A DNA stretch of 64,000 nucleotides from Sulfurospirillum halorespirans DSM 13726 (lineage in GTDB: Bacteria; Campylobacterota; Campylobacteria; Campylobacterales; Sulfurospirillaceae). The translations under genes were made by a program, and so were the position numbers. This document shows, one piece after another, positions 1 through 63,700 of this stretch; the first letter of the stretch is position 1; each line of letters begins with the position of its first letter. Location of the stretch: NCBI RefSeq assembly GCF_001723605.1, contig NZ_CP017111.1, positions 2,046,001-2,110,000 of the forward strand. The letters are read 5' to 3'. The notes beneath the pieces were generated by a model that had not been told where the DNA came from, searched no databases, and worked only from the letters and a program-made list of their open reading frames with translations.

Positions 1-374
1 TCCTCTTCAAGATCGTACAACATCACCGCCGCAAGGTCGATCACATTGCCAGCTACTGCTGTTTTGGTCGCTTCAAAAAGCGTGTTAGCACTCGCATTTA
101 TTTTGGCTTCGCACAAAGGAAGAAAGGCTTTGGCTTTTTCGGAAGAGGCTTTTTTGAAATCCGCGTACAAATCATCGACGTTTAAAAGTTCTGCCATCGC
201 TTCGTACAAAGGAGCAGCATTCATGGGAGGATTTTGATTCATATCGAAGTTTTTGATCTGCTGATGGGCAATGGCATCAATCAAAAGCGCTTGTTCATCG
301 TTTACATGTAAAAGTTCACACACGCGTTTGGTCTGGTCATAAATACAGGTTAAACAGCGCTCTTGAATTTTCAT
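1..374 (-). CDS. DUF89 / ARMT1-like damage-control phosphatase family protein, N-terminal part
   Basis: Partial gene: it starts at the ATG complementary to 372-374 and runs off the left edge, so about 124 N-terminal residues are visible. It opens with MKIQERCLTC, a Cys-x2-Cys pair near the N-terminus, followed by a helical region with an NPPM segment. This is typical of prokaryotic DUF89 proteins, metal-dependent phosphatases thought to clear damaged phosphometabolites. The catalytic domain lies outside the window, so the family call rests on the N-terminus only. One copy of the iterated palindrome (302-311) is read here as Leu-His-Val. The gene follows rplS in the same direction, but a terminator-like hairpin separates them. 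Confidence 0.6.
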   Translation of the reverse strand, partial: MKIQERCLTCIYDQTKRVCELLHVNDEQALLIDAIAHQQIKNFDMNQNPPMNAAPLYEAMAELLNVDDLYADFKKASSEKAKAFLPLCEAKINASANTLFEATKTAVAGNVIDLAAVMLYDLEE

Positions 375-407
375 GTGATTCTTTTAGAAAGATTTGAGGA
401 AGGGGAA

Positions 408-443
408 AGAAGGAAAGGCAGTATCACCATTCGTGTTACTGCC
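408..443 (-). terminator. Probable rho-independent terminator after rplS
   Basis: On the minus strand GGCAGTA (443-437) pairs with TACTGCC (423-417), and an inner CAC/GTG pair extends the stem. A T-rich tract (TTTCCTTCTTT) follows. It sits 10 bases after the rplS stop codon and would end the ffh-rpsP-khpA-rimM-trmD-rplS transcript. Confidence 0.6.
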
Positions 444-452
444 CAAAAAGTA

Positions 453-2307: not shown

Positions 2308-2309
2308 GT

Positions 2310-2580: not shown

Positions 2581-2614
2581 TTAGCTTTACATGTAAGCTT
2601 ACATGTAAAGCTAA
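2581..2614. repeat. 34-bp perfect palindrome made of two TTACATGTAA units
   Basis: TTAGCTTTACATGTAAG (2581-2597) is followed directly by its exact reverse complement (2598-2614). It contains two copies of the iterated 10-mer, at 2587-2596 and 2599-2608. It lies between the ffh stop and the rpsP start. No run of T follows on either strand, so it is not a standard terminator. As RNA it could form a long stem. Confidence 0.9.
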
Positions 2615-4971: not shown

Positions 4972-6123
4972 TTAACTTCCTAATATTTGCTCAAGGAGTG
5001 GCGCAATGTCACTACGATGAGAGATAGCACTCTTGGGGTAATTCTCGATACTATCAAAAATGTTTTTTAGATCTTCAATGTTACATGTAATGCTATTTTC
5101 AACCGCTTCAAAAAGCACTTTCTGATTAAAAATAGACGCGCCACTAATGAGTTTGACTCCAAAAAAAGCAGGTTCTAGCGGATTATGTCCACCCACACCT
5201 TCCACAAAGGAACCTCCTAAAATCACAATATCTGCAATCGCATAGAGATTAATGAGTTCACCCATTGTATCGCACAAAATAACATCGGCATCCAACGTAG
5301 GCTGCTTCGATAAACACGCATAACGTTTGCCCTTATTTTGAGCATATTCGCTTAAAAACAGACCTACCTTTGAAAATCGTTCAGGATGCCTAGGAACGAC
5401 AATGAGCTGATCGTTTGGCAAGAGGTTCACATGCGATAAGATCAAAGCCTCTTCACCCTCATGCGTACTTGCCACAACCACAATGCGTTTACCCTCAGCT
5501 TTAGCATACGCATGACTCAGGGTGTACGTACCAAACATTTTGATATTTCCACTGACTTGAACCGACTTCGCACCCAAATGCTGAAGCCTTTGCGCATCTT
5601 GCTCACTTTGTGCCAAGACAAGATCGATATGGCTCAAAATCCAACGATAGACCCAAGCAAAACGCTGATACGAAGCATACGAGTGATCGGATATTCTAGC
5701 GTTCAGTAAAACGGTTCGCATCCCTTTGGCTTTGGCGACGATAAACAACAAAGGCCAAAGCTCTGCCTCCATCACGACCAATACCTTTTGCTTGCGTATC
5801 CAAAACGGTAAAAAAATCTCAAAAGGCAGATAGCGAACCTCCGCCTTTGCATGTTTACACGCTTCATGAAACCCTGTTTGGGTGATCACGCTCAGGCGAA
5901 TGGAAGATGGATCAATTTTCTCTATCAAAGGGCTAAGGGAGCGAACTTCACCAAAAGAGCACGCATGAAACCAAATGCCATCTTCTGAAAAAGAAGGATT
6001 GTTTTTCAAGAAAAAGCGTGCGGGAATCGAATCTTTGTATTTAGGCTTAAAGCGAAGGTACAGTAAATACGGCAACGCTAAGAGATAAAGAAGCGTTGCC
6101 AAAACGTAGTACAGAAAGTTCAA
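4972..6123 (-). CDS. waaA: 3-deoxy-D-manno-octulosonic acid (Kdo) transferase WaaA
   Basis: 383 residues. Inner-membrane glycosyltransferase that adds Kdo from CMP-Kdo to the lipid A precursor. An N-terminal membrane anchor (residues 3-25) precedes a GT30 domain with GIWFHACSFGEVRSLSPLI, TQTGFHEA, LWPLLFIVAKAKG, ARISDHSYASY and the C-terminal LGGSFVEGVGGHNPLEPA, all hallmarks of KdtA/WaaA. An iterated palindrome at 5081-5090 is read as Ile-Thr-Cys-Asn. It starts 3 bases after the Zn-ribbon gene. Confidence 0.95.
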   Translation of the reverse strand: MNFLYYVLATLLYLLALPYLLYLRFKPKYKDSIPARFFLKNNPSFSEDGIWFHACSFGEVRSLSPLIEKIDPSSIRLSVITQTGFHEACKHAKAEVRYLPFEIFLPFWIRKQKVLVVMEAELWPLLFIVAKAKGMRTVLLNARISDHSYASYQRFAWVYRWILSHIDLVLAQSEQDAQRLQHLGAKSVQVSGNIKMFGTYTLSHAYAKAEGKRIVVVASTHEGEEALILSHVNLLPNDQLIVVPRHPERFSKVGLFLSEYAQNKGKRYACLSKQPTLDADVILCDTMGELINLYAIADIVILGGSFVEGVGGHNPLEPAFFGVKLISGASIFNQKVLFEAVENSITCNIEDLKNIFDSIENYPKSAISHRSDIAPLLEQILGS

Positions 6124-6863: not shown

Positions 6864-7583
6864 CTATTTATACTCAAACGGATTTTTAGAATTTGACATT
6901 ATAGCCTTTAATGGCAAATTTTTCAAATATTGGGCTAAACACTCTGGGAAATAGCGCTCCGACTCAAAGTGCCCAATGTCAATTAATGAGAGATTATTTT
7001 CTTTTGCTTCCATCGCTTGATGGTACTTAAGATCACCGCTTAAGAAACAATCCGCTTCAATTTTGGAGATTAAATCTCCCCCTGCTCCTGTCGTAATCGC
7101 ACAACGCCCAACCCACTCTTTCGCTCGTACAATTCGTAAATTTTCAATGCCTAAAACATGCTTTACATGTAACGCCAAATCATCCAAACGTTGGTTCACC
7201 TCACAGTAGGCTACAAACTCGTTACTTTCGACGATTTCAAAGCCTAGTTTTGACGCCACAAACGCATTAAGATGCGAAAGATCAAAGTTCGTGTGCATCG
7301 CGATCAAACTAATTTTTTTTTGCACCATAATTTGAATCAGATTGGAAGGATATTTCGCAAAATTGAGCTGTTTTAAACTGCTAAAAATAAGTGGATGATG
7401 CGTTATAATCAGTGAATTTTCAGCTACCTCTTCTAACAGAGCGCTATCGACATCAAGGCTCAGATAAATTTGTTCTACCTCATCCTCACGACTTCCGATG
7501 AGAAGACCGCTGTTATCCCAAGATGCTTGCGTGGCAAAGGGGCTCAGTGTGTCTAAAAAATCGTACAGTGCCCCTACTTTCAT
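6864..7583 (-). CDS. Nif3-like dinuclear metal-centre protein (GTP cyclohydrolase I type 2 family)
   Basis: 239 residues from the ATG at 7583-7581, which overlaps the glyQ stop by one base; the upstream in-frame extension lies inside glyQ and is unlikely to be used. Metal-binding motifs of the family are present: SWDNSGLLIG near 25, ITHHPLIF near 68 and HTNFD near 104, plus FLSGDLKYHQA and DIGHFESE in the C-terminal half. The biochemical role of Nif3/YbgI proteins is unsettled. An iterated palindrome at 7163-7172 encodes Leu-His-Val. Confidence 0.9.
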   Translation of the reverse strand: MKVGALYDFLDTLSPFATQASWDNSGLLIGSREDEVEQIYLSLDVDSALLEEVAENSLIITHHPLIFSSLKQLNFAKYPSNLIQIMVQKKISLIAMHTNFDLSHLNAFVASKLGFEIVESNEFVAYCEVNQRLDDLALHVKHVLGIENLRIVRAKEWVGRCAITTGAGGDLISKIEADCFLSGDLKYHQAMEAKENNLSLIDIGHFESERYFPECLAQYLKNLPLKAIMSNSKNPFEYK

Positions 7584-8440: not shown

Positions 8441-8465
8441 TATCTTTTCCTTTTACATGTAAAGA

Positions 8466-9463: not shown

Positions 9464-10729
9464 TTATCCTTTTACTTTTGCTCTTAAAAATGTAAACCCT
9501 GGTAAGGTCGTTGGCAAGACAATCGCATTGACATTGCCGCTGTGAATCTCATCAAACACTTTACCATTCGGTGTTTGAAGCTTTTTAAAGGATATTTTCC
9601 AAAGCCCCTCTTCTTCAAAAATCGTGCCGATGTCATTGTCCATTGCTTCAATTGAAAGATGAGCTGGCATCACCAAATCATACTTTACATGTAAAGCCAA
9701 AACATCCTTACACAAACAGGTCGCACCATCTTCACTGACTTGAGCCACCACTTGGTGAGTGCCTTCACTAATCGAGTGCGCTAAGTTTTGGGTGTCGTTT
9801 TTCTCAAACGGACGGTTCACCAAATAACCATCGCTAAAGCCTCGGTTTTTTGTTGTATCGAGCTCTGCTGTGTATTTAGTCGCATCAAACTGGTTCGCGT
9901 AATAATCCTCAATCGCTTGACGGTACGTTTTTGTTGTAATGCCAACATAATACGAACTCTTGGTTCGCCCTTCGATTTTCAGTGAATCAATGACACCCGA
10001 ATCAAGTATCTCTTTGACATGCGCACTTAAATTGAGGTCTTTCGCATTCATAATGTGCGTACCCTCTTCACTCTCTTCAATGCGAAACAGCGTTCCACTC
10101 TCTTCGTTATGTGCGTAAAGTGTATAAGGGAAGCGACAGTCATTGGCACAGCTTCCGCGGTTTGAGACCCGTCCACTTTGTACGGAGCTAATCAAACAGC
10201 GACCACTGTAGGCAAAACACATCGATCCATGCACAAAAACTTCTAATTCTAAATGCGGCAGATGCTTTTTGATCTGCTCCAAATCTTTCAAACTCACTTC
10301 TCGCGCTGCGATAATGCGCTTCACGCCCATATCTGAATAGACTTCGGCGTCAAGGTAACTGAGCACATTGGCTTGCGTGGAGAGGTGAATCGGAATATGG
10401 GGTGCAATTTTATGCGCTAATTTAATGACACCTGGAGCTGCTACAATAAACGCATCCGGTTTCATCGCCGCCACACGCTCAATATGCTTTTCAAGTAAAG
10501 GAATCTGTGCATTAAACGGAAACCCATTCACGGTTGCATGCAGGTGTTTGCCTTGTGCGTGCGTGTAGTTGATCGCCTCTTCAAAACTCTCGTAGGTAAA
10601 CTCCTTGCCTGAGCGTATGCGAAGGGAGAAGTGACTAACTCCCGCATACACGGCATCTGCGCCATAAGCCAGCGCTATTTTTAACTTTTCAAAATTTCCA
10701 GCAGGAGAAAGCAGTTCGACGTTTGACAC
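9464..10729 (-). CDS. U32 family protein (YegQ/TrhP type, tRNA hydroxylation)
   Basis: 421 residues. Annotated widely as collagenase-like peptidase U32; the closest characterised E. coli type (YegQ/TrhP) helps make 5-hydroxyuridine at tRNA position 34. Typical segments are ELLSPAGNFEKLKIALAYGADAVYAG at the start, HATVNGFPFN, LEVFVHGSMCFAYSGRCLISS, and the Cys motif SNRGSCANDCRFPY, likely Fe-S ligands. IEGRTKSSYYVG follows. An iterated palindrome at 9685-9694 encodes Leu-His-Val. It starts one base after the cheZ stop. Confidence 0.88.
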   Translation of the reverse strand: MSNVELLSPAGNFEKLKIALAYGADAVYAGVSHFSLRIRSGKEFTYESFEEAINYTHAQGKHLHATVNGFPFNAQIPLLEKHIERVAAMKPDAFIVAAPGVIKLAHKIAPHIPIHLSTQANVLSYLDAEVYSDMGVKRIIAAREVSLKDLEQIKKHLPHLELEVFVHGSMCFAYSGRCLISSVQSGRVSNRGSCANDCRFPYTLYAHNEESGTLFRIEESEEGTHIMNAKDLNLSAHVKEILDSGVIDSLKIEGRTKSSYYVGITTKTYRQAIEDYYANQFDATKYTAELDTTKNRGFSDGYLVNRPFEKNDTQNLAHSISEGTHQVVAQVSEDGATCLCKDVLALHVKYDLVMPAHLSIEAMDNDIGTIFEEEGLWKISFKKLQTPNGKVFDEIHSGNVNAIVLPTTLPGFTFLRAKVKG

Positions 10730-11558: not shown

Positions 11559-12338
11559 ATGATGATTGATTTACATAACCACACCCCTTTGTGCAACCAC
11601 GCAGATGGAAGCATTGAAGCGTATGTGCAAGCCGCCATAGAAAAAAAAATAGATGTTTTTGGCTTTTCCGATCATGCGCCTATGAACTTTGATGAGGCGT
11701 ATCGTATGGATTTTTCACAAATGGAAAATTATGAAAAAGATGTTTTACATGTAAAAGAAACCTACCACGATCAGATCCAAATTTTGCTCGCCTACGAGGT
11801 TGATTTTTTAGATGGATACGTTGATGAGCGTGTGCTGAAACGTCCTGTTGATTATTTTATAGGCTCTGTCCATTTTTTAGGCGCTTGGGGCTTTGACAAT
11901 CCCGAATTTATCGGAGAATACCGCACCAAAAACATTGATGAAGTGTGGGAACGCTATTTTGCAGCGATTGAAGCCATGGCAAAGAGCGGATTATTTGATA
12001 TTGTGGGGCATTTGGACTTGATTAAAGTCTTTAATTATCTGCCCAAAAAAGATGTCAGACTCATCGCAAAAAATGCCATAAAAGCGATTAAAAAAGCCAA
12101 TATGACCATCGAGCTCAACGCAGCTGGCTTTCGTAAACCTGTGGGTGAAGCGTACCCAAGTCATCCCTTGATGGAGTTGATCGCAGAACAGGATATTCCT
12201 ATTACTTTTGGATCCGATGCGCACACTGTTCAACATATTGGATTGCGCCAAGAAGAATTGCGTTTGATCGCAAAAGCATTTGGGTATAAAAAATGTGCAA
12301 CTTTTGAAAGCAGAGATCGAATATTGGTTAATTTTTAA
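11559..12338 (+). CDS. PHP-family histidinol-phosphatase (HisJ/HisK type)
   Basis: 259 residues. The PHP metal-binding motifs are seen in order: DLHNHTPLCNHADG at the N-terminus, FGFSDHAPM near 35, AYEVDFLDGY, SVHFLG, GHLDLIK and the C-terminal GSDAHTV. These match HisJ-type histidinol phosphate phosphatases (histidine synthesis). Specificity is not certain, since PHP phosphatases vary. Two ATG codons are adjacent; either could start. An iterated palindrome at 11745-11754 encodes Leu-His-Val. Confidence 0.8.
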   Translation: MMIDLHNHTPLCNHADGSIEAYVQAAIEKKIDVFGFSDHAPMNFDEAYRMDFSQMENYEKDVLHVKETYHDQIQILLAYEVDFLDGYVDERVLKRPVDYFIGSVHFLGAWGFDNPEFIGEYRTKNIDEVWERYFAAIEAMAKSGLFDIVGHLDLIKVFNYLPKKDVRLIAKNAIKAIKKANMTIELNAAGFRKPVGEAYPSHPLMELIAEQDIPITFGSDAHTVQHIGLRQEELRLIAKAFGYKKCATFESRDRILVNF

Positions 12339-13882: not shown

Positions 13883-14018
13883 TACGCTACGCTATGCACT
13901 AAAGCTTGCCTCTTCGAGGCAGAATTAAAATCTTCGTTCGCATTATTTCTCTTAACACTAAAAATGGTTTTTCATTGTTTTACATGTAAACGTGTTTGGC
14001 ACACACATCGAAGGGCTG

Positions 14019-15975: not shown

Positions 15976-16667
15976 TCTCTAAAACTCCTTTGTCTAAATC
16001 CAGACGCCAAAAGCTGCTTCGTGTACGCCTCTTTTGGATCGTTTAATATCTGCTGGGTCAAACCAGACTCAATGATTTTCCCGTTTTTAATAATACCCAC
16101 TTCATCGCATAAATGCTCAATCGTTCCAATGTCATGCGTCACAAAAAGCAGATCAAACCCGCACTCTTTTTGAAGCGTTGCGATCAACTCCAAAACCGTG
16201 GTTTTACTCTCTTCATCCAGTGCCGTTGTTGGCTCATCCAAAAGCAGTAACCTTGGCTCAATGCTCAGCGCCATCGCGATGATGAGGCGTTGTAACTGCC
16301 CACCACTGAGCTCTGAGGGAAAGCGGTCCAAAAAGTCCACATCCAAATTGACCATGCGCAGGTATTTTTGGGCTCTCTCAAGTGGTGCCATAAACTGCTT
16401 TTCGATTTTGGTGAGTGGAGAGAGCGCTGTAAAAGGGTTTTGAGGCACAAAAGCGATGCTCTCTCCTCGTTTGAGCTCATAGCTGGCATTGTACGACAGT
16501 GTGCTCTTTAACTCATGCGGTAACATGCCCAAAAGTGCTTTGAGTGTCAAACTTTTTCCACTACCACTCTCCCCAATCAGCGCAAACGATCGCGCAAACG
16601 AAAAGCTTACATGTAAAAGGGTTTTAGCTTTATGTTGAATCACAAGCTCTTTACATGTAAAGCTCAA
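15972..16667 (-). CDS. ABC transporter ATP-binding protein, orphan (oligopeptide/nickel importer type)
   Basis: 231 residues from a TTG at 16667-16665 that overlaps the preceding stop (TTGA); a GTG at 16694 is the alternative. Walker A is GESGSGKS near 38, the signature is ELSGGQLQR near 130, Walker B is LLLLDEPTTALDE, and the switch His lies in LFVTHDI. Layout and the DPKEAYTKQLLASG tail resemble Dpp/Opp/Nik ATPases. No permease or binding protein lies nearby, so partner and substrate are unknown. Two iterated palindromes (16607-16616, 16651-16660) are read as Leu-His-Val and Phe-Thr-Cys-Lys. Confidence 0.8.
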   Translation of the reverse strand: MSFTCKELVIQHKAKTLLHVSFSFARSFALIGESGSGKSLTLKALLGMLPHELKSTLSYNASYELKRGESIAFVPQNPFTALSPLTKIEKQFMAPLERAQKYLRMVNLDVDFLDRFPSELSGGQLQRLIIAMALSIEPRLLLLDEPTTALDEESKTTVLELIATLQKECGFDLLFVTHDIGTIEHLCDEVGIIKNGKIIESGLTQQILNDPKEAYTKQLLASGFRQRSFRE

Positions 16668-34008: not shown

Positions 34009-34090
34009 TCGCTCCAGCGCTTTTTACATGTAAAGCACTCTTTAGCAACTCTAAAGTACAATAGAATCTATTTTATGGAAAAGGTTCACT

Positions 34091-41927: not shown

Positions 41928-42312
41928 ACTCTTGCGTGTATACAATATCTAACAACTCAATAAAATTTGCAGGATCACTGTAGCCTGCAAATTCATCTAT
42001 AATGCTAAGATCACGTGGTGATAAAATCAAATTAGTAGGAAAATACTTTACATGTAAAGCTTGTGGCAATGTTGGGTCTTCTCCATTAATGCTTACATGT
42101 AAATAGTTTTTAGCAATGTGCTGATTAAATTTTGGTACATCAAAAATATCTTTTTGCATCTTAATGCAATACGGACATCCCTCTTTTTCAATACTTAAAA
42201 GAATGAGTTTATTTTCCCTCAGCGCTTTTTGACGCTCCATTTCTAAAAATTCAGCTTTTAAACAGAGTGTACTTAGCATAACCATCATTGCAATTTGAAA
42301 CCATTTTTTCAT
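41920..42312 (-). CDS. Periplasmic thioredoxin-fold protein
   Basis: 130 residues from the ATG at 42312, which overlaps the EamA stop (ATGA); the longer ORF reads through EamA in another frame. Signal peptide about 1-20, then a thioredoxin domain with the redox motif Cys46-Pro-Tyr-Cys49 in KEGCPYCIKMQ and the cis-Pro loop YFPTNLIL. Resembles SoxW/DUF255-like thioredoxins that reduce or form disulfides in the periplasm. Palindromes at 42048 and 42093 both encode Leu-His-Val. Convergent 8-base overlap with the Gate gene. Confidence 0.82.
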   Translation of the reverse strand: MKKWFQIAMMVMLSTLCLKAEFLEMERQKALRENKLILLSIEKEGCPYCIKMQKDIFDVPKFNQHIAKNYLHVSINGEDPTLPQALHVKYFPTNLILSPRDLSIIDEFAGYSDPANFIELLDIVYTQEFK

Positions 42313-51255: not shown

Positions 51256-51613
51256 TTGTCTTTTTTCCCTCAAATGCTCCGATTTTCAGGAGCTTTTCTA
51301 TGTAATACACCTTGTTAAAAACCTAGGTTTCTACCCTATTTCTACACGAAAGCGTAAAGATTGATTATTGTATCAATTTTTGTGTTGTTTTAAAATTAAG
51401 ATGCTAAAGAGTTGGAAGAAATAGCTGGCAGAAGAAAAAAACGCTCGGACCGGGCAATCCGAGCGTTGGTCTTAAAAATTGGTAGGTTCTACACAAAAAG
51501 GAGGTATGTGTCTTACATGTAAAAGTATAGACGCTTAGCTTAAACAAGATATGAACCATTCGTTAATAAAACCTAAACCTATAAACATCGTTCACATTCT
51601 TTACATGTAAAGC
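51256..51613. other. Intergenic region between lplT and the amidotransferase gene
   Basis: 358 bases without a supported gene. It holds a strong minus-strand terminator (51434-51467) and two palindrome copies (51513-51522 and 51601-51610). A GGAGG followed by a 10-codon reading frame at about 51490-51528 on the plus strand exists, but there is no support that it is translated. Confidence 0.5.
51434..51467 (-). terminator. Rho-independent terminator of the aas-lplT operon
   Basis: AACGCTCGGA (complement arm, 51440-51449) and TCCGAGCGTT (51458-51467) form a perfect 10-bp stem around an 8-base loop. On the minus strand it is followed by a T-rich run (TTTTTTCTTC). It lies about 150 bases after the lplT stop. 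Confidence 0.85.
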
Positions 51614-52876: not shown

Positions 52877-55008
52877 GCTATCTCGCTTGCCATGGATTTT
52901 AAAGTGACATAATCGGTCTTGCCCGTGCCCAAGAGCGGAAGTACTTCCACATGGACGATCTTTCTTGGTACGGCGATTTCGGGGTAACCGTTGTTTTGCG
53001 CACTTTTTTGCAACGCTTCGCGGGTTAAGTTTTTATCGGTTGTAAACAGCACGATCGCTTCGCCTCTGGCGACATCAGGGATAGATGAGCTTGCATGTAA
53101 AAAGCCACTGGAGGTCAACGTCGCTAGTTTTTCCACGGACTCTAGGGAAATCATCTCACCTGCGATTTTAGCAAAACGTTTGACACGCCCTTTGATCTGC
53201 ACAAACCCAGCCTCATCAATGCTCACGATGTCGCCTGTGTTGTACCAGCCCTCGCCTGCTTCGGAGGTCGGCTTTTCCAAAATGCCCGGTTTTTCAGCAC
53301 GCAAATACCCGCTCATCACATTGGCACCTTTTACATGTAAAATTCCGCCCTCCTCGATGCCAGGAACGGGAATCAGTTTATGCTCAATGCCCGGCAAGAT
53401 CTGCCCCACCGTGCCTTTTTTGTACGCCATCGGTGTATTGACCGCGATGACGGGCGCTGTTTCGGTTGCACCATACCCTTCAAAGATGCGCAAACCAAAC
53501 TTCTCAAACCAAAGCTCGCGCACGTTTTCAGAGAGTTTTTCAGCCCCAGCGATGACATAGCGTACTTTATAAAAGTCATACGGATGCGCGTGTCGTGCAT
53601 AGTTGTGCAAAAAGGTACTCGTACCTAACAAAATCGTGCAAGACCTGTCATACGCGATCTCAGGAATGACACGGTAATGAAGCGGCGAAGGGTACATAAA
53701 AAGGTGCATTCCTCTAAAAATCGGAAGCAGTGAGCCTGCGGTTAGACCAAACGAGTGGAAAATCGGCAGGGCGTTGAGCATTTTATCTTCCGTGGAAAAA
53801 TCAACGATAGAGCTAATTTGAGCGATATTGGCAAGCAATGCTTCGTGGGAGAGCACCACCCCTTTAGGTTTTCCCTCACTGCCTGAGGTAAATAAAATCA
53901 CCGCAGGCTCTTTTTCATCTTGCAAGGTTGTCGCAAGGCGTGGAAAGTGAATCGCGTAGAGCATGAGCCACAGTTTATCCACCAAGCGCATCGATGCTTT
54001 CAACTCTTCGAGGTAGACAATGCGAACACCGTGTAATGCTTCTAATTTAGGAGCGAGTTTGGCTTGCTCCACAAAGGCTTTTGAAGTAACGATGGTCTTA
54101 ATTTCAGCCGCAATACACGCGCTTTGCAAACCATCCACACCTGCTGTGAAATTGAGCATAGCAGGCACTCGTTTCATACCTGAAAGCCCTAAAACAAGAG
54201 CAAGTGAAGCAACTGCCGTTGGCATCAACACACCCACCGCTTCTTCTTTTTGGGTCAAAGGACTTATCAGTCGTCCTAAACCTAGCGCCATTTTAAGAAG
54301 CTGCGCATAGGTGTATTCTATCTGCTTGATGTCTTCCACGATGGCTTTGTTTTTGCCGTGCGTTTCAATCGCCTCTAAAAACGTGCCAAAAAGATCGTTG
54401 GCAGGACGTGCGTCAAACGAACACTCTTGCATCAAACGTCGTATCGCTTCACCTGAGAGAAGACGTCTTTGGTGCGATGTTCCCTCATGCGGAACATTGA
54501 GTTTGGTTGGCGTGCAGTAATGGAGCGTGATCTGTGGAAATAGTCTGTGCGGATAGGTTTTTGGCATACGAGAAAGCGTGCTAAACGTCGCACCTTGAAT
54601 CATCACAGGCACCACCGTCGCATTGGCTTTTACCGCGACAAACGCACTTCCTTCATAAATCTTCATCAAACTGCCCGTCGTGGTAATGCGCCCCTCAGGG
54701 AAAATCACCACAGGACGTCCGCTCTCGACCAGACGAATCACCGCCTTAATTGCCATCGGATTGGACGGATCAACGGTGAGATGATCGGTGAGTAGCAAAC
54801 AGAGTCGCACAAAAGGGTTTTTGGCGATTTGCGTGTTGATGATAAACACAGGAGAAACGGGCAACATCACGCCTAAAATCAAGCCGTCTAAAAACGATTG
54901 ATGGTTGGCGATGATGAGCATCGGCTCAGCTCGGTTGGCTGTAAAATGCCCTTGAACACGAATTTTAAATAAAAAACGAAGAATGATGCGAAGTGCTGTT
55001 TTGATCAT
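52873..55008 (-). CDS. aas: Bifunctional acyltransferase / acyl-ACP synthetase Aas
   Basis: 711 residues. The N-terminal PlsC-like domain (1-200) has the HX4D motif at His36-Asp41 (NHQSFLDG) and FPEGRITTTGSL. The C-terminal AMP-forming ligase domain (about 215-711) has ILFTSGSEGKPKGVVLSH, GYGATETAPV, YNTGDI and the GTGKTDY Lys motif near the C-terminus. It activates fatty acids and re-acylates lysophospholipids at the inner membrane. A palindrome (53331-53340) encodes Leu-His-Val, and a near copy lies at 53091-53100. Confidence 0.92.
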   Translation of the reverse strand: MIKTALRIILRFLFKIRVQGHFTANRAEPMLIIANHQSFLDGLILGVMLPVSPVFIINTQIAKNPFVRLCLLLTDHLTVDPSNPMAIKAVIRLVESGRPVVIFPEGRITTTGSLMKIYEGSAFVAVKANATVVPVMIQGATFSTLSRMPKTYPHRLFPQITLHYCTPTKLNVPHEGTSHQRRLLSGEAIRRLMQECSFDARPANDLFGTFLEAIETHGKNKAIVEDIKQIEYTYAQLLKMALGLGRLISPLTQKEEAVGVLMPTAVASLALVLGLSGMKRVPAMLNFTAGVDGLQSACIAAEIKTIVTSKAFVEQAKLAPKLEALHGVRIVYLEELKASMRLVDKLWLMLYAIHFPRLATTLQDEKEPAVILFTSGSEGKPKGVVLSHEALLANIAQISSIVDFSTEDKMLNALPIFHSFGLTAGSLLPIFRGMHLFMYPSPLHYRVIPEIAYDRSCTILLGTSTFLHNYARHAHPYDFYKVRYVIAGAEKLSENVRELWFEKFGLRIFEGYGATETAPVIAVNTPMAYKKGTVGQILPGIEHKLIPVPGIEEGGILHVKGANVMSGYLRAEKPGILEKPTSEAGEGWYNTGDIVSIDEAGFVQIKGRVKRFAKIAGEMISLESVEKLATLTSSGFLHASSSIPDVARGEAIVLFTTDKNLTREALQKSAQNNGYPEIAVPRKIVHVEVLPLLGTGKTDYVTLKSMASEIA

Positions 55009-55318: not shown

Positions 55319-55474
55319 CTTATATTCCTAAATGTTTAAGTTTATCAACATAATAATCTTTTTTGTCTTAAGTATTTCTTAGAAAATGGTGGGATTGGTC
55401 TTTACATGTAAAAATAAATTCCTCATTGATTATTCGAAACTGTCTGAGTTTTATCCTATTTTTGACAATATATC

Positions 55475-56389: not shown

Positions 56390-56540
56390 ATTTTTTCCTT
56401 TTAAAGTGATCAGGTAAAATATTTAACTTTCGTAAACATACTCTTAAAGAGAATAGAGGGTTAAACATTTTTTTGTTTTTGTCATTTTAACGTATACACC
56501 ATCGTTTTCTTGATTTTTTAATCTTTACATGTAAAGCAAA

Positions 56541-57605: not shown

Positions 57606-58955
57606 TTAGAGCTCTTTTACGATGTGCGACACCAACCACGTCATCGCTAAAAGATCGGCACTACCACCGGGTGAGAGGTTTTTTGAGGTCATATCGGTGT
57701 CTAATTCACACAAAAAAGTGTCTAAATTTTTTGCGTTTGGTTTTACATGTAAAAGCGCTTGGGCTTTGGTTTTAGCGTACTCAAGCCCGTCAACGCCACC
57801 TCGTGACCAAAGTGTGCTGTCATCCAGTTGGGACATCAGCAACAGCAGGGTTTTTTTAAGCGCGACTTCTTCGCCCTCTTCTGCTTTGCATGTTTGAAAA
57901 AAAGGCAACGTGTGATCAAAAATAATCTCAAAGCCACTCTGTGCGATGCCACGAATGCCACTGCTTCCTGTCTCATAAAAAAAGCGTGCGCCTGCACTGT
58001 TGGGTTTTACATGTAAAAGATCGTCCTCGACCAAATTGGCGCACAAGGCTTGCATTTGGGCTTGTAAACATTTACATGTAAAGCGCTGATCGCTTGCTTT
58101 GAGACGTCCGATGGCACCGCAAAAGACGGCGAGACAGAAGATCATTCCTTTGTGCGTATTGACCCCTTTTGTGGCTTCAAACATCGCTTTTTCGCAGGCG
58201 ATGCCGATTTCACGCAGTCGTACAAAACTCTGTTTGGCATCTTCATGAGCGTGGGTTTGCGCGGTTTCAATCCACTGCATCACAAACGGTTTGATGGCGT
58301 GAATGCTCGCGTAAAAGGTGTGAATATCCATATCGCGGTGTGCGCCGCTGTTGGCTTGGTCGACCAGACCCGGTTTGGGAGTGAGCTTGACTTCGGTTTT
58401 CATCGCGCGTTCGCACCACAAGGCAATCGAGTGGGCAAAGGCATGTTTTTCGACTAAGTGTTTGATATGAGCATTCAACTGCGCATAGGTGTGTTTTTGA
58501 GACCGCGCACAAAGCTTTGCTTCCTCTTCGCAGACAAAACATTTTCGTTTAGCAAGTCCAAGCGCACTTCGAGAGAGAATAGCCCCCGCAGAATCGAGAA
58601 CATCGATATCCATCAAACGACCGAGTGGATGGCTGTTTTCGATTTTACATGTAAAGGCTTTGAGCACCTTGGCTTCGGCTTTACATGTAAAAAAAGATTC
58701 CGCACCGCTTGGGGAAAGTTGGCTCTCGCATGCCAGCAGTTCGATGCCCTCGTTTTCAAGCATCTCAAGAAGTGCTTGATGGGCGATTTCATGCACGACA
58801 ATGGCTTCATGCGAGAGTTTGATGAGGCTTGGAATGTTGATGGAAAGAGAAATCAGCGATGCCAAAGGGTGGCGGCTTAAAAGCATTTTTTGCTTCCGAG
58901 CACGCTCCTCTTTGGCGTGTAAAATCGCGTCAAGCGTCGTTGGTTTATCTATCAT
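57606..58955 (-). CDS. citXG: CitX-CitG fusion: citrate lyase prosthetic group transferase / triphosphoribosyl-dephospho-CoA synthase
   Basis: 449 residues, two enzymes in one chain. Residues 1-170 are CitX (LLSRHPLASLISLSINIPS, HPLGRLMDIDVLD), which attaches the prosthetic group to CitD. Residues 175-449 are CitG (LTPKPGLVDQANSGAHRDMD, GVNTHKGMIFCLA, GLEYAK), which makes 2'-(5''-triphosphoribosyl)-3'-dephospho-CoA. Fused citXG genes are known elsewhere. Five palindrome copies lie in this one gene (57743, 58007, 58072, 58645, 58681), the highest density in the window, coding LHV twice and TCK three times. Starts at the citF stop. Confidence 0.9.
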   Translation of the reverse strand: MIDKPTTLDAILHAKEERARKQKMLLSRHPLASLISLSINIPSLIKLSHEAIVVHEIAHQALLEMLENEGIELLACESQLSPSGAESFFTCKAEAKVLKAFTCKIENSHPLGRLMDIDVLDSAGAILSRSALGLAKRKCFVCEEEAKLCARSQKHTYAQLNAHIKHLVEKHAFAHSIALWCERAMKTEVKLTPKPGLVDQANSGAHRDMDIHTFYASIHAIKPFVMQWIETAQTHAHEDAKQSFVRLREIGIACEKAMFEATKGVNTHKGMIFCLAVFCGAIGRLKASDQRFTCKCLQAQMQALCANLVEDDLLHVKPNSAGARFFYETGSSGIRGIAQSGFEIIFDHTLPFFQTCKAEEGEEVALKKTLLLLMSQLDDSTLWSRGGVDGLEYAKTKAQALLHVKPNAKNLDTFLCELDTDMTSKNLSPGGSADLLAMTWLVSHIVKEL

Positions 58956-60455
58956 TTATGCCAATTGGCGAACAACGTCGATAATGGAACCATCGCGATA
59001 GCGAATGACCGCAACGACTTTATCCGTATATTTGATCTCAGCAGGCTCACCGCAGAGTGCAATCGCGCGCGCATACAGCTCTTGCATCTCCACGATTTGA
59101 AGCCCTGCTTTTTTGAGGCGTGCTTTGAGCTCCACATTTTTAGGATTGACCGCGATGCCTTGATCGGTCACGACAACATCCACGCTACACCCCGGTGTGA
59201 CGATGGTGTTGACCCGTTTGGTCACCGTTGGAAGGCGTCCGCGTGTGAGCGGTGCTACGATGATGGAGAGTTTCGCTTCCGCCGCCGTGTCACTATGACC
59301 TCCCGAAGCGCCTCGTAAAAAGCCTTTGGAGCCTGTGATGACGTTGACGTTAAAGTCAAGGTCGACCTCAAGGGCGCTTAAGACCACGATGTCAAGCTGT
59401 TTGATCGCCGCACCTTTGGAGCTTGGGTTGGCATATTCGTTCGCGCTAATCTCGATGTGATTTTTGTTTTCACCCAACGATTTTGCGGCAAATTCATCGA
59501 AACTTTGCACATCAAGAAGCGTTTTAATGAGACCGCGTTTAAGCATATAGACCATCGTACCCGTGATGCCGCCCAGTCCAAAACTCGCGTGAATACCCTT
59601 CTCTTCCATCTTTTCACTCAAAAAGACCGTCGTTGCCAAAGAGGCGCCACCCGTTCCTGTTTGGATGCTAAAACCCTCTTTGAAAAGCCCTGAATGTTCG
59701 ATGAGTTTCGCCGTGTGGCTGGCGAGTAAAAGCTCTTTTGGATTGGTCGTCATACGCGTCTCACCCGCACCAATTTTGGAAGGATCACCTACCTCATCGA
59801 CTAAAACCACCGCGTCGACTTGGTCTTGATGAAGGCTAGCAGGCACATTGGGGTACTCCTCCAAAGACTCGGTAAGGACGATCACATACTCTGCATACTG
59901 CGCGTCGATCATCGCGTAACCGAGTGAGCCACATTTTGAGCGACCCGAATAGCCATTGGCATTGCCAAACGCGTCACACACAGGCACACCTAAAAAGGCA
60001 ACATCGATTTTAAGCTCGCCCGATTGGATTAAGTGTACACGTCCACCGTGTGAGTGAATTTGCACCGGTTTTTCCATGAGCCCTTTAGAGATCGCTTCGC
60101 CCAGTTTACTTCGAAGTCCAGAGGTATAGATCTGCGTAACCACGCCGCTTTTGATGTGCTCGATCACAGGATCGTTCACAGAAGCGAGTGAACTTGACGC
60201 CAAAGTCAGGTTTTTAAAGCCCATTTTCGCGATGACATTCATCACGTTATTAATCAAAAGATCGCCACCGCGAAACGCATGGTGAAAGGAGATGGTCATG
60301 CCATCTTTCAAACCTGAGCGTTTTATGGCTTCTTCGATGCTCTCACACAGCTTTGCCCTGCGGTCTTCACCCTTGGTTTTTGCTTTACATGTAAAGAAAG
60401 GCGCATTGATGGGTGTTAACGCTTTTGTGTCGAATTGTTTTTGTATATCTTTCAT
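58956..60455 (-). CDS. citF: Citrate lyase alpha subunit (citrate CoA-transferase)
   Basis: 499 residues from the ATG at 60455 (AGGAGAAGA upstream, ATGA overlap with citE). Exchanges the acetyl-acyl-carrier for citrate to give citryl-ACP. Conserved segments: DGMTISFHHAFRGGDLLINNVM, GVVTQIYTSGLRSKLGEAISKGL, GRSKCGSLGYAMIDAQYA, TGTGGASLATTVFLSEKM and GVDVVVTDQGIAVNP-like SVDVVVTDQGIAVNP. A palindrome at 60385-60394 codes Phe-Thr-Cys-Lys in the variable N-terminal region. Confidence 0.95.
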   Translation of the reverse strand: MKDIQKQFDTKALTPINAPFFTCKAKTKGEDRRAKLCESIEEAIKRSGLKDGMTISFHHAFRGGDLLINNVMNVIAKMGFKNLTLASSSLASVNDPVIEHIKSGVVTQIYTSGLRSKLGEAISKGLMEKPVQIHSHGGRVHLIQSGELKIDVAFLGVPVCDAFGNANGYSGRSKCGSLGYAMIDAQYAEYVIVLTESLEEYPNVPASLHQDQVDAVVLVDEVGDPSKIGAGETRMTTNPKELLLASHTAKLIEHSGLFKEGFSIQTGTGGASLATTVFLSEKMEEKGIHASFGLGGITGTMVYMLKRGLIKTLLDVQSFDEFAAKSLGENKNHIEISANEYANPSSKGAAIKQLDIVVLSALEVDLDFNVNVITGSKGFLRGASGGHSDTAAEAKLSIIVAPLTRGRLPTVTKRVNTIVTPGCSVDVVVTDQGIAVNPKNVELKARLKKAGLQIVEMQELYARAIALCGEPAEIKYTDKVVAVIRYRDGSIIDVVRQLA

Positions 60456-61339: not shown

Positions 61340-61632
61340 AATACACTCCAATCAGGCTCAGCTTCGCCCAAAGCTCTTAAAATGGCGGTTTGAACGCGCG
61401 CTTTGATCACATAATCAAGTGCGCCTTTGTCTTGAACGATAAGCTTCACACCCTCTACGCCCATCGCCATCGCTGTTTCCAACACAAGGGCTCTGATCGC
61501 ATCGCCGTAAATCTCTTCAACACTGCTTTCTAACTCAATTTCAATGCCTTTCACATCCACAGGAATCACGCGTACAAACGCATCACTCGACTCCAGTGTT
61601 CCTGCGTGGGCAGTCTCTAGCTTTTTGCTCAT
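61336..61632 (-). CDS. citD: Citrate lyase acyl carrier protein (gamma subunit)
   Basis: 98 residues. Carries the phosphoribosyl-dephospho-CoA group on a conserved Ser in AHAGTLESSDAFVRV (Ser15 region). The rest has EIELESSVEEIYGDAIRALVLE and a C-terminal ARVQTAILRA. Overlaps citC and citE by 4 bases each. Confidence 0.93.
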   Translation of the reverse strand: MSKKLETAHAGTLESSDAFVRVIPVDVKGIEIELESSVEEIYGDAIRALVLETAMAMGVEGVKLIVQDKGALDYVIKARVQTAILRALGEAEPDWSVL

Positions 61633-62648
61633 TTTTCTTCCTCTTTAGACATCATGTGTGCAATCAACGCGTACGTTGTCGGAGGTACCAACGGGAGGAT
61701 CTCTTCCAAACGATTGTGTTGCATTAATTTTCTGACTCTCGAAGCCGAAATTGGCTCACCACCATACTCAATACGCCCTAACTCAACCACCTCAATGGCT
61801 GGAAATTCACTCGGGCGAACCAGTAATTTTTTCATCTGTTGGTTATACTCATTCGTCACGGCACATAACGGCTCTTCTCCCACAAAACGGTGCGTAATGC
61901 CCAGTTGTGGCGCTAGATGATTTCTAAAAATATTGAGATCCAGCTCCGTATAGAGTGAATCAATCTGACGCTTGTCCTTAATAAAATAAGTCGGAAACGT
62001 CGCTTTAGAGATAATATAGTCAGAACCCTCATGTATCGTGAGGTTTTCAAGGTCCACTAACCCTTCGCAAATCAGTCTGTAGCGATCTTTAAAGGTAAAA
62101 AAGGAAGCGTCTTCCTTCACCACAAATAGATGCACCCAATGCGACCTTTCACAGGCTTGCTCGACTAAAAAACGGTGCCCTAACGTAAACGGGTTGCAGT
62201 TCATCACGATGCTTCCAACCACGTCGCCCGTATGTTTATACTTTCGCAATCGTTTTTTATACAGATCAATATTGTAGCTATTCTCCATCAAAATGACCTG
62301 ATGATGCGCCTGCTCAATATACTTAAACCCACACGACTCAAACACCTCCTGATAATCTGGTTTCGTAAACAAAAAAAGTTCATGCCGTCCTTCACGAAAC
62401 GCCACTTTCAAAAGCTCGCTCATCAGACTCAGCGCCAAACCTTCGCCGCGCAAAGACTCATCGAGCGCGATGTTTTTAAGCACTTTCCCGCTCACTCCTC
62501 CGCACGCTACGATGCGGTCATCCTCTTTGGCAACCACAAACACTTCGATATCCTCAGACATCTCAAGATCAACACTGTCTAAAAAATCCTTCACTTTTTG
62601 CCATCGCACGATACTCGTGTGTGGCACTTCAGAGAAGACAAAACTCAT
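61629..62648 (-). CDS. citC: [Citrate (pro-3S)-lyase] ligase
   Basis: 339 residues. Acetylates the CitD prosthetic group with ATP and acetate, activating the enzyme. The N-terminal 130 residues are a GNAT-like domain (DDRIVACGGVSGKVLKNIALDESLRGEGLALSLM), and the rest is a nucleotidyltransferase domain with IVMNCNPFTLGHRFLVEQA (HxGH-type site) and SASRVRKLM. Overlaps the permease gene and citD by 4 bases each. Confidence 0.93.
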   Translation of the reverse strand: MSFVFSEVPHTSIVRWQKVKDFLDSVDLEMSEDIEVFVVAKEDDRIVACGGVSGKVLKNIALDESLRGEGLALSLMSELLKVAFREGRHELFLFTKPDYQEVFESCGFKYIEQAHHQVILMENSYNIDLYKKRLRKYKHTGDVVGSIVMNCNPFTLGHRFLVEQACERSHWVHLFVVKEDASFFTFKDRYRLICEGLVDLENLTIHEGSDYIISKATFPTYFIKDKRQIDSLYTELDLNIFRNHLAPQLGITHRFVGEEPLCAVTNEYNQQMKKLLVRPSEFPAIEVVELGRIEYGGEPISASRVRKLMQHNRLEEILPLVPPTTYALIAHMMSKEEEK

Positions 62649-63700
62649 CGGTCCTCTTTGGGGCGAAGGTATTTGACAAATACGGGTGCAACACTCATCA
62701 CCAAAAACATTCTCACAATGTGATGAAGCGCAACATACGGTAAATTCGCTGCGATAATGATCGCTATCAAATTCATCTCCGACTGACCGCCTGGTGAGAA
62801 GGCTAACAAAATCGAGATCAGTGGAAAATCGGTCATCTTAGAGACAATAAAGACAAACACGGCTGAAATCATCGCTAAAATCACAAAATACCCCAGCGTT
62901 TGCATGAAAATTTTTGTAATTTCTTTACATGTAACGCCAACAAAGACAAACCCAACGGTCGTTCCAAGTATCAGCTGAATGATCTTAATGATCTCATTGG
63001 GTGGGCGCGCATGCACGATGCCCGAACCATAAACAACCGCCCCTAAGATCATAGGCCCTAGCATGGTTCCACCCGGTATTTTAAGCTTCAAAGCACCCCA
63101 CCAGCCCACCAGCGCACACACGGTTAGGATGAACATATCGTGAGGATCACTCTGTAAAAATGGCTGAGTAATGCTGACTCTGCCATCCAGTGAGACATGC
63201 GAGAGGGCTTGAATGATGAAAGGAAGCGTAAAAACAATGCACAACAGCCGAACGGATTGGGTCATTGTCACTTTATACACATTCGCACCCGTCGCTTCTG
63301 CCAACGTTACCATTTCCAAAAGACCACCGGGCATCGAGCTAAAATAGGCGGTCATCTTATCAAACTTCAACCACTTCCAGTAGTAAATCATCCCGCAAAA
63401 CGTGATAATCAAGACAAACGGTAAGATCAGAACAATGCTGGAAACAAACTCTCCTAAGTAGTGCAAAATCGTAGGATTAAAGGCACTACCGATGGTAATA
63501 CCAAGCACCGCGCGTGCAGGGGCTGAAAACATTTTAGGCGTTCGAAGGGGGATTTTGGGAAAACGACTCGCAATGGCAATGGCAACAATCGAGCCCAAAA
63601 GCCATGGGAGGGGTACATTGATAAACGAGAAAAGTATGGCTCCTAGAATCCCTATCAAAAGTGATGCTACGACAGGTAAAAAGCCTTTAAGCCATTGCAT
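62645..63700 (-). CDS. AbrB/AmoA-family membrane permease coupled to citrate lyase genes
   Basis: 351 residues with about ten to eleven membrane helices in two repeats. Family motifs: NVPLPWLLGSIVAIAIA near 28-44, YFSSMPGGLLEMVTLAEATGAN near 118-139, and in the second half PPNEIIKI and LAFSPGGQSEMNLIAI. The paired SMPGG / SPGGQSEM motifs define PF05145. Some relatives are called ammonia monooxygenase or regulators, but they are membrane proteins. ATGA overlap with citC makes it the first gene of the operon, so it may move citrate or a related carboxylate; that is inferred. Palindrome at 62925 codes Val-Thr-Cys-Lys. Confidence 0.78.
   Translation of the reverse strand: MQWLKGFLPVVASLLIGILGAILFSFINVPLPWLLGSIVAIAIASRFPKIPLRTPKMFSAPARAVLGITIGSAFNPTILHYLGEFVSSIVLILPFVLIITFCGMIYYWKWLKFDKMTAYFSSMPGGLLEMVTLAEATGANVYKVTMTQSVRLLCIVFTLPFIIQALSHVSLDGRVSITQPFLQSDPHDMFILTVCALVGWWGALKLKIPGGTMLGPMILGAVVYGSGIVHARPPNEIIKIIQLILGTTVGFVFVGVTCKEITKIFMQTLGYFVILAMISAVFVFIVSKMTDFPLISILLAFSPGGQSEMNLIAIIIAANLPYVALHHIVRMFLVMSVAPVFVKYLRPKEDR

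What the first reader, a model, noticed from the sequence alone, without database searches (positions are those of the whole stretch)
302..62934. A 10-12 bp palindrome, TTTACATGTAAA, is iterated about every 1.8 kb
I counted 35 exact TTACATGTAA by eye, against roughly 0.2 expected from base composition. The copies are spread over unrelated housekeeping genes and intergenic DNA on a chromosome with no mobile elements. Being a perfect palindrome, it has no orientation, unlike chi or KOPS sites. It resembles the cyanobacterial HIP1 repeats in density and behaviour. Possible roles are a DNA uptake or recognition mark, a methylation site (it contains CATG inside ACATGT), a nucleoid-protein site, or the product of a biased mutational or repair process. 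I know of no described role in Campylobacterota. Extrapolated to a genome of 2.5-3 Mb it would mean over a thousand copies.
Basis: partly seen in the sequence, partly recalled or inferred. Interest (0 to 1): 0.88.

Follow-up and report, generated by a model that had tools for sequence, protein, structure and literature searches.

The report
Genome-wide palindrome centred in bent DNA
A short mirror-image DNA word occurs about 1,500 times around one sulfur-bacterium chromosome, is kept at the same places in related species, and sits at the centre of about 300 letters of rhythmically patterned, probably bent DNA, which suggests an unrecognised way these bacteria shape their chromosome or mark their own DNA.

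Summary
The invariant core is TACATGTA with graded flanks (YYY-core-RRR). It occurs across the family of Sulfurospirillum and patchily in the Sulfurimonas family; the other Campylobacterales families sampled are at background. Sites are held in place: 50 of 57 aligned cores are identical between two species at 77.5% DNA identity (7.4 expected), but 2 of 39 in a motif-poor relative. One-mismatch copies are not in excess; density between genes is over fourfold that in genes. New here: AT content around sites oscillates every ~11.25 bp, phase-locked to the palindrome's centre, out to ~160 bp on each side, with a positive mean in 22 of 22 stretches. At 39 places decayed in the motif-poor relative it is not detectable there. 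An orphan adenine methyltransferase of NlaIII type tends to co-occur but is neither necessary nor sufficient. Best reading: the dyad of a DNA-bending or wrapping complex, a chromosome-architecture element comparable to cyanobacterial HIP1. Main rival: a palindromic DNA-uptake sequence. The binding protein was not identified.

The parts
302..311 (.). TTACATGTAA, intergenic
2587..2596 (.). TTACATGTAA, intergenic, paired with the next copy (12 bp)
2599..2608 (.). TTACATGTAA, intergenic
5081..5090 (.). TTACATGTAA in ORF 4972-6123 (-)
7163..7172 (.). TTACATGTAA in ORF 6864-7616 (-)
8453..8462 (.). TTACATGTAA, intergenic
9685..9694 (.). TTACATGTAA in ORF 9464-10729 (-)
11745..11754 (.). TTACATGTAA in ORF 11559-12338 (+)
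13980..13989 (.). TTACATGTAA, intergenic
16607..16616 (.). TTACATGTAA in ORF 15972-16694 (-), pair 44 bp apart
16651..16660 (.). TTACATGTAA in ORF 15972-16694 (-)
19126..19135 (.). TTACATGTAA in ORF 18815-21361 (-)
19771..19780 (.). TTACATGTAA in ORF 18815-21361 (-)
22762..22771 (.). TTACATGTAA in ORF 21458-23425 (-)
23468..23477 (.). TTACATGTAA, intergenic
23994..24001. TACATGTA core only; listed as intergenic by the greedy gene call, although ORF 23651-24352 (-) spans it
30439..30448 (.). TTACATGTAA in ORF 29478-30545 (+)
31915..31924 (.). TTACATGTAA, intergenic
34024..34033 (.). TTACATGTAA, intergenic
34349..34358 (.). TTACATGTAA in ORF 34091-35026 (+)
34709..34718 (.). TTACATGTAA in ORF 34091-35026 (+)
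39580..39589 (.). TTACATGTAA in ORF 39339-40376 (+)
42048..42057. TTACATGTAA, pair 45 bp apart; listed as intergenic by the greedy gene call, although ORF 41920-42501 (-) spans it
42093..42102 (.). TTACATGTAA, second copy of that pair, same caveat
42657..42664 (.). TACATGTA core only, in ORF 42309-43199 (-)
51513..51522 (.). TTACATGTAA, intergenic
51601..51610 (.). TTACATGTAA, intergenic
53331..53340 (.). TTACATGTAA in ORF 52873-55008 (-)
55402..55411 (.). TTACATGTAA, intergenic
56525..56534 (.). TTACATGTAA, intergenic
57743..57752 (.). TTACATGTAA in ORF 57606-58955 (-)
58007..58016 (.). TTACATGTAA in ORF 57606-58955 (-)
58072..58081 (.). TTACATGTAA in ORF 57606-58955 (-)
58645..58654 (.). TTACATGTAA in ORF 57606-58955 (-), pair 36 bp apart
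58681..58690 (.). TTACATGTAA in ORF 57606-58955 (-)
60385..60394 (.). TTACATGTAA in ORF 58956-60503 (-)
62925..62934 (.). TTACATGTAA in ORF 62645-63700 (-)

Best explanation
TACATGTA with graded YYY/RRR flanks is the dyad of a chromosome-architecture site. A symmetric (dimeric) DNA-binding factor recognises the 14-bp palindrome, and the DNA for about 150 bp on either side bends around it or forms the apex of a supercoiled loop; AA/TT recur on the same helical face as the dyad every ~11.25 bp and G+C half a turn away. About 1,500-1,800 such sites, one per 1.6-2 kb, would set the path of the nucleoid or of supercoils. The orphan adenine methyltransferase, where present, probably modifies the CATG at the centre and could tune binding, but it is not the driver. 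Shown: the palindrome, its abundance, its conservation, its decay in one lineage, and the phase-locked AT pattern. Inferred: bending, the dimeric factor, the role in supercoil or nucleoid organisation, and the CATG target of the enzyme. The factor itself was not found.
For: Phase-locked ~11.2-bp AT oscillation around sites in G000 (n=283): amplitude 0.085 at 9-40 bp, falling to 0.022 at 130-160 bp, each reached by 0 of 200 random sets; also in sites deep in ORFs (n=165) as far as 160 bp and in non-coding sites (n=78) as far as 130 bp. Left and right flanks separately give z 10.2 and 11.7 over 20-160 bp; 22 of 22 stretches have a positive mean (smallest 0.002); AA/TT in phase with the dyad, GC/CG half a period off. 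Seen also in G002 (n=100), in G006 with G001 (n=80) and in a pooled set of ten further genomes of the family, four of them of the same genus (n=84), 0 of 500 random sets each. Of 21 control palindromes the largest amplitude is 0.027 against 0.065. At places aligned between G000 and G002 (n=57) the pattern is present in both (0.043 +- 0.007 and 0.034 +- 0.007); at those aligned to motif-poor G009 (n=39) it is 0.035 +- 0.011 in G000 and 0.004 +- 0.009 in G009. Positions conserved: 50 of 57. Core one-mismatch copies at chance: 138 observed, 135-191 expected by three models, beside 342 perfect cores. Density 1.94 per kb between genes against 0.45 in genes, ratio 4.3 to 4.9 under three gene-call rules.
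Against: No binding protein was identified, and there are no binding or topology data. The chromosome has a background ~11.25-bp AT periodicity anyway (0.0050 far from sites, 0.0102 near them), so sites may settle in phase with it rather than shape it; that G009 has less of it (0.0029) is one genome. The loss of the pattern in G009 rests on 39 places and about 2 standard errors, and the second pair, G002 against G009 (n=20), shows no clear pattern in either (0.011 +- 0.014 and 0.001 +- 0.011). In the Sulfurimonas family the pattern is weak (0.013 +- 0.005, n=57; at 10.5 bp reached by 160 of 500 random sets, n=49). Helical phasing of site pairs is only suggestive (G000 p=0.011; pooled p=0.023; G002 alone p=0.77). 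One paper argues that genomic periodicity in general does not serve DNA bending (PMC7537859, abstract and section 16).
Confidence: 0.45

Rival explanations
1. A palindromic DNA-uptake sequence: competent cells of this clade take up DNA carrying TACATGTA (perhaps methylated at CATG), and transformation keeps re-importing perfect copies. Dialect flanks and lineage losses follow changes in the receptor.
For: Density, intergenic excess, placement 7-22 bp after stop codons (25 of 64 tandem intergenic sites) and close pairs that can fold as hairpins resemble uptake signals as I recall them. Flank dialects over a conserved core: T at the first flank position in Sulfurospirillum, C favoured in G025 and G034 (16 and 12 sites). 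Patchy gain and loss in 200 genomes of the Sulfurimonas family. In Campylobacter jejuni uptake requires DNA methylated at RAATTY by CtsM (passages of PMC10046745 and PMC8627207), so a modified palindrome as uptake mark has a precedent in the phylum.
Against: No excess of one-mismatch cores, whereas near-misses are common for known uptake signals (recalled). Phase-locked flanks reach 130-160 bp, longer than any uptake motif that I know. ComEC is found in 77 of 80 genomes tested, motif-rich or poor, so presence of the channel does not separate them. No uptake data.
Confidence: 0.27
2. A by-product of methylation-linked repair, as Elhai proposed for HIP1: an orphan CATG methyltransferase and a repair bias create and protect TACATGTA without selection for a function.
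For: The D12 methyltransferase co-occurs: 23 of 36 genomes with a strong match are motif-rich against 16 of 164 without in the Sulfurimonas family (within genus g20 12 of 20 against 11 of 87), and 13 of 13 Sulfurospirillum genomes with over 1,000 copies have a match, one of them (G012) in two pieces. Two genomes with lower counts have a damaged copy: G435 (144 cores) with a stop at codon 57 and G429 (90 cores) with only a C-terminal remnant beside tsaD. CATG is shared by the alternative palindrome TATCATGATA of G033. In G002 the two near-miss classes at the C of the core are few (2 against 8.2 and 2 against 14.6).
Against: Motif-rich genomes G154, G388, G410, G414, G336, G035 and G013 have no full-length copy, and G154, G388, G410, G336 and G035 no PF01555 enzyme either. 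Of the best 80 related loci in named genomes (a capped list) only four, all Campylobacterota, hold three or more cores. Intergenic excess and the long flank pattern are not predicted. In G000 near-misses at the C are not depleted (C to T 11 against 13.3).
Confidence: 0.12
3. Preferred DNA gyrase sites: the wrapped enzyme acts at these places, downstream of genes, and the pattern reflects gyrase wrapping.
For: The E. coli gyrase motif also has phased ~10-bp G/C variation and gyrase acts downstream of transcription units (PMC6379681, abstract and passages). Sites here are densest between convergent genes, 2.82 per kb, and least dense between divergent genes, 1.33 per kb.
Against: The gyrase motif is 130 bp with a 36-bp central region between two periodic 47-bp arms (PMC12393610, passage); here periodicity is strongest from 9 to 40 bp and runs to ~160 bp. 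An invariant 8-bp core is not a gyrase trait that I know of. Motif-poor relatives also need gyrase (recalled).
Confidence: 0.1

Closest known systems
HIP1 (GCGATCGC) and alternate HIPs of cyanobacteria
   Same: An 8-bp palindrome about once per 1-2 kb across a chromosome; associated with orphan methyltransferases of an inner sequence, with exceptions (PMC4390886, abstract and section 18 part 1); maintenance by selection and a possible role in chromosome structure have been argued for HIP1 (second-hand, PMC6604393 passage).
   Different: Unrelated sequence and phylum, AT-rich, graded flanks with dialects, no excess of one-off copies (one-offs are common in many cyanobacteria, PMC4390886 section 13), strong intergenic excess, and phase-locked ~11.25-bp flanks to 160 bp, which I have not seen reported for HIP1.
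DNA uptake sequences of Neisseria (DUS) and Pasteurellaceae (USS)
   Same: About one per 1-2 kb, intergenic excess, close pairs forming hairpins, dialects over a conserved core (known systems recalled, not tested here).
   Different: Palindromic, no near-miss excess, long phased flanks; no uptake role shown.
CtsM and its RAATTY mark in Campylobacter jejuni
   Same: A palindrome with m6A made by a methyltransferase in the same phylum, needed for DNA uptake (passages).
   Different: RAATTY is a short common word (28,482 sites in a C. coli genome), not an enriched long palindrome; the relation of the enzyme found here to CtsM was not tested.
E. coli gyrase motif and BIME/REP elements
   Same: Phased G/C content, preference for regions behind genes.
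   Different: Aperiodic centre and shorter extent; no invariant palindromic core that I know of.

Membership tests
Highly iterated palindrome (HIP) class | Palindromic octamer massively over-represented genome-wide | tested here: met
   342 TACATGTA in 564 kb of G000; order-1 expectation about 1 per 100 kb; 1,496 TTACATGTAA genome-wide
HIP1 proper | Sequence GCGATCGC in a cyanobacterium | tested here: not met
   Core is TACATGTA; relatives are Campylobacterales
HIP class | Methyltransferase for an inner sequence present in the genome | tested here: inconclusive
   NlaIII-type D12 enzyme associated but absent from several motif-rich genomes; CATG target inferred from ICEA-family neighbours in other genomes and recall that NlaIII cuts CATG
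HIP class | One-off copies common | tested here: not met
   138 one-mismatch cores in G000, 135-191 expected
DNA uptake sequence | Raises uptake of DNA by competent cells | not testable with these tools
   needs transformation assays
DNA uptake sequence | Carrier has the transformation channel ComEC | tested here: met
   77 of 80 genomes, rich and poor alike, G000 among them
DNA uptake sequence | Excess of near-miss copies (recalled) | tested here: not met
Gyrase cleavage motif | 130 bp: a 36-bp central region between two 47-bp periodic arms | tested here: not met
   Periodicity strongest at 9-40 bp and present to ~160 bp; gyrase description
Restriction-modification site | Restriction enzyme beside the methyltransferase | tested here: inconclusive
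   None recognised by eye among ORFs of at least 60 aa in L080, about 1.3-1.5 kb on each side in G000, not scanned with profiles; ICEA-family neighbour in G088, G040, G392 and G402
Nucleoid-protein binding site | Bound by a protein in vivo | not testable with these tools
   needs footprinting or ChIP

The most novel reading that the evidence does not exclude
A sequence-specific, nucleosome-like registration system of a bacterial chromosome: ~1,500-1,800 palindromic dyads per genome fix the phase of the ~11-bp AA/TT rhythm of the surrounding ~300 bp, so that the long-known but unexplained genomic periodicity has, in this clade, defined nucleation points recognised by one factor, possibly tuned by m6A at CATG.
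Probability: 0.25. Interest if true: 0.95.

Novelty: new variant of a known kind. Interest (0 to 1): 0.86.

Why it matters
Highly iterated palindromes have been a puzzle of cyanobacteria for decades. A second, unrelated case in a distant phylum, with motif-rich and motif-poor close relatives, gives natural knock-outs to compare, and the phase-locked flanks give a physical hint of what such an element may do to DNA. If it is an uptake mark instead, it would be the first palindromic enriched one that I know of. Either way a genus with cultured strains becomes a test bed.

Tried and rejected
Rejected as chance or local. Orphan methyltransferase as sole cause: rejected because of motif-rich genomes without it and carriers without the motif. 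A clean split into orphan enzymes (motif-rich) and restriction-modification copies (motif-poor) does not hold: ICEA-family neighbours occur in motif-poor G088, G040 and G392 but also in G402 (247 cores), and G392 and G402 also lie beside tsaD; motif-poor G075 and G331 have TPR-protein neighbours and stay unexplained. An alternative enzyme in motif-rich genomes without it: PF01555 and PF07669 gave no common candidate. ComEC presence as a separator: uninformative. Phage records matching window 2000-12000: none in 'near' mode. Regular helical spacing of site pairs: weak. Terminator role: some close pairs can fold as hairpins, but about two thirds of sites lie in ORFs. G000-G006 alignment gave almost no overlap. 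Passages of two Sulfurospirillum papers (PMC8865925, PMC7755780) showed nothing on the motif or on methylation.

Mended on checking: I first took G211 and G402 as genomes with a stop inside the methyltransferase; one search shows that the stop reported there (and in G387, G024, G032, G026, G042) is the last codon of the match, and that only G435 of the eight checked is interrupted. I lowered the repair rival from 0.13 to 0.12 for that. The first extraction of methyltransferase ORFs read the wrong strand for minus-strand loci and was redone.

Limits: gene calls are greedy ORFs, and three of the window's cores classed as intergenic lie in ORFs of the plain list; the intergenic excess holds under looser rules. 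The methyltransferase association is not corrected for phylogeny. 'Motif-rich' in f16 is a rule of my own (at least 90 cores and at least 2.5 times the reversed word); a 'strong match' is over 300 bits. Controls for the flank pattern were random positions and 21 palindromes, plus six others of which three have under 20 sites. Only 564 kb of the 3.03-Mb genome was read. The loss in G009 is inferred from other genera of the family having the motif; no tree was built.
Full report
What is there. The window holds 35 exact TTACATGTAA and 37 copies of the inner 8-mer TACATGTA. The genome, one contig of 3,029,840 bases, holds 1,496 TTACATGTAA and 4 of the word read backwards. In 564 kb of it that I read (the window plus 500 kb of stretches) there are 342 TACATGTA, 61 per 100 kb, where an order-1 Markov model gives about 1 per 100 kb. 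Around the core the half-site is pyrimidine-rich: over 91 sites the first flank base is T in 92%, the second T in 72%, the third C or T in 73%. So the unit is YYYTACATGTARRR: a strict core and graded flanks, as one expects for a site read by a symmetric protein.

Where it occurs. In 24 genomes of the genus the 10-mer runs from 49 to 1,496 copies; in 44 of the family (f1), from 6 to 1,496. In 298 genomes of the order, families other than f1 and f16 have 0-10 copies each; f16 has six genomes with 31-367 and the rest at 0-10. The 8-mer in 200 genomes of f16: genera g79, g80 and g81 have 406-1,768, g53 has 99-1,151, the large genus g20 runs from 8 to 848, and the other genera have 3-58. Names: contig 2 of G005 carries its methyltransferase hit from base 1692, as does plasmid pSDCE1 of Sulfurospirillum diekertiae, so I take the genus to be Sulfurospirillum; contig 1 of G197 has the length, 311,531, of a Sulfurimonas sp. 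RIFOXYD12_FULL_33_39 contig, so I take f16 to be the family of Sulfurimonas. I recall, without a call, that the contig lengths of G006 and G002 equal the genomes of S. multivorans and S. barnesii.

Dialects. G025 and G034, of other genera of the family, favour C instead of T at the first flank base (16 and 12 sites). G033 has TACATGTA at background (2 against 1.5) but TATCATGATA, with the same CATG centre, at 10 against 0.3 expected in 120 kb. Plasmid pSDCE1 has 14 cores in 39.9 kb, fewer than the 24 that the G000 rate gives (p 0.02), only 4 of them in the TTACATGTAA form, and carries its own methyltransferase of the family below.

Maintenance. Aligning G000 with G002 over 101 kb at 77.5% identity, 50 of 57 aligned cores are identical (7.4 expected from the mean identity); core identity is 0.96 against 0.74 in the flanks at 10-30 bp. 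Read the other way, 49 of 55. With G001 (82.3%) 27 of 34, and 27 of 29 the other way. With G009 (79.9%, 49 copies of the 10-mer) 2 of 39 are identical, 6.5 expected, core identity 0.73; G002 against G009 gives 2 of 23, 3.3 expected. Since other genera of the family have the motif, G009 most likely lost it and its sites decayed. One-mismatch cores in G000 number 138; models give 135 (order 3), 183 (order 1) and 191 (order 2), so there is no excess beside 342 perfect ones. G006 has 34 (30-44 expected), G001 31 (24-36), G002 48 (60-94, that is fewer), G009 149 (115-162). On little sequence, some genomes with lower counts look somewhat above expectation (G010 1.72, G013/G035/G021 1.37, G281 1.30, G211 1.26, G022 1.25, G017 1.24).

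Placement. By a greedy ORF call, 226 of 342 sites lie in ORFs (0.45 per kb) and 116 between them (1.94 per kb). Between genes the density is 2.82 per kb for convergent, 2.10 for tandem and 1.33 for divergent pairs, and 25 of 64 tandem sites lie 7-22 bp behind a stop codon. Looser gene rules give a ratio of 4.5 and 4.9 instead of 4.3. Gaps below 50 bp are in excess, 22 against 8.0, and some close pairs can fold as hairpins. In ORFs one reading frame dominates, 152 to 62 to 12.

The flank pattern. Symmetrised AT content around sites oscillates in phase with the centre of the palindrome. In G000 (n=283) the amplitude at 11.2 bp is 0.085 at 9-40 bp, 0.046 at 40-70, 0.035 at 70-100, 0.035 at 100-130 and 0.022 at 130-160, none reached by 200 random sets; at 160-200 bp it is 0.010, reached by 37. 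Sites deep in ORFs (n=165) show it as far as 160 bp and non-coding sites (n=78) as far as 130, so it is not a product of protein helices alone. Each flank by itself gives z above 10 over 20-160 bp, 71% of sites are positive, all 22 stretches have a positive mean, AA/TT peak in phase with the dyad and GC/CG half a period off. Of 21 other palindromes the largest amplitude was 0.027 (86 sites), against 0.065. G002, G006 with G001, and a pooled set of ten other family genomes (four of the same genus) agree, with best periods 11.4-11.6 and 0 of 500 random sets each; f16 does not exceed random at 10.5 bp with 49 sites (160 of 500), and with a fixed-phase test has 0.013 +- 0.005. At the 57 places aligned to G002 the pattern is present in both species; at the 39 aligned to G009 it is 0.035 +- 0.011 in G000 and 0.004 +- 0.009 in G009; for 20 places of G002 aligned to G009 it was not clear in either (0.011 +- 0.014 and 0.001 +- 0.011). 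The chromosome has a general 11.25-bp AT autocorrelation, 0.0050 far from sites and 0.0102 within 160 bp in G000, 0.0048 and 0.0086 in G002, and 0.0029 overall in G009.

The methyltransferase. G000 has a D12-class adenine methyltransferase (327 aa, PF02086; G000:C1:2740751-2741722, outside the window). No restriction gene is recognisable by eye in the 1.3-1.5 kb on either side; a CheY-like gene (named by recall) lies next to it, as in G001. The family search finds a match in 33 of 44 family genomes, three of them fragments or weak (G009, G034, G012), and in all 13 Sulfurospirillum genomes with over 1,000 copies, G012 included. In f16, 58 of 200 genomes have some match and 36 a strong one; 23 of these 36 are motif-rich by my rule, against 16 of 164 without (odds ratio 16, Fisher p 3e-11, phylogeny not corrected; within g20 p 3e-5). 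In 17 of 33 f16 loci examined it lies near a tsaD gene and in 16 near a Tpx-like gene (Tpx named by recall). ICEA-family neighbours lie beside it in G088, G040, G392 and G402, which, with my recollection that NlaIII of that family cuts CATG, is the ground for inferring CATG as target.

Interpretation. A symmetric core with graded flanks, conserved position, and a rhythm of AA/TT and GC centred on the dyad and running through genes and gaps alike is best read as the centre of a bent or wrapped nucleoprotein structure. Long phased flanks, in my judgement, are not predicted by an uptake signal or by a repair bias. The gyrase motif is phased too, but shorter and with an aperiodic centre (passages). 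HIP1, the nearest known thing, has been linked to chromosome structure from its distribution (as reported in PMC6604393; the original was not held), and Elhai notes HIP1-rich genomes without the CGATCG methyltransferase (PMC4390886 section 18), as here. The uptake rival stays open because Campylobacter has a methylation-marked uptake system.

Print search. Full-text searches for the word itself (15 of 18 papers listed), Sulfurospirillum with palindrom (14 of 14), HIP terms (25 of 2,298, 5 of 10, 3 of 3), methylome terms with genus names (15 of 247), CtsM terms (12 of 501) and uptake terms with genus names (12 of 132) listed no paper that, by title and start of abstract, describes this element; a word search of the Elhai paper finds neither ACATGT nor these genera. 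Only open-licence papers are held and most lists were cut, so this is weak evidence of absence.

Noticed in passing
L013-L015, L037-L039 (G033): A related genus has TACATGTA at background but TATCATGATA enriched (10 against 0.3), and also ACCGGT (32 against 8.7) and GATATC (74 against 33), in 120 kb.
   Followed up: partly
L462 (plasmid pSDCE1) 1692-2732 and 20494-21355: A Sulfurospirillum diekertiae plasmid carries its own methyltransferase of the same family and 14 TACATGTA with looser flanks, four inside that gene and five in or beside a LexA-family gene.
   Followed up: partly
L116 3-1496, L118: In two Sulfurimonas-family genomes (G366, G197) an Eco57I-type methylase gene lies directly before the D12 methyltransferase and tsaD.
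   Followed up: no
L019, L040, L041 (G135), L044 (G181): GATATC is about threefold over-represented in some Sulfurimonas-family genomes (65 against 20; 27 against 7.5).
   Followed up: no
window 40904-40980 and 46796-46949: tRNA-Arg, and tRNA-Ala and tRNA-Ile side by side; 44300-46700 matches 524 plasmid records of many genera, as ribosomal RNA would. No TACATGTA lies between 42664 and 51514.
   Followed up: partly
L359: A 12.2-kb stretch of a viral-collection contig, 29% GC, with six TTACATGTAA.
   Followed up: partly
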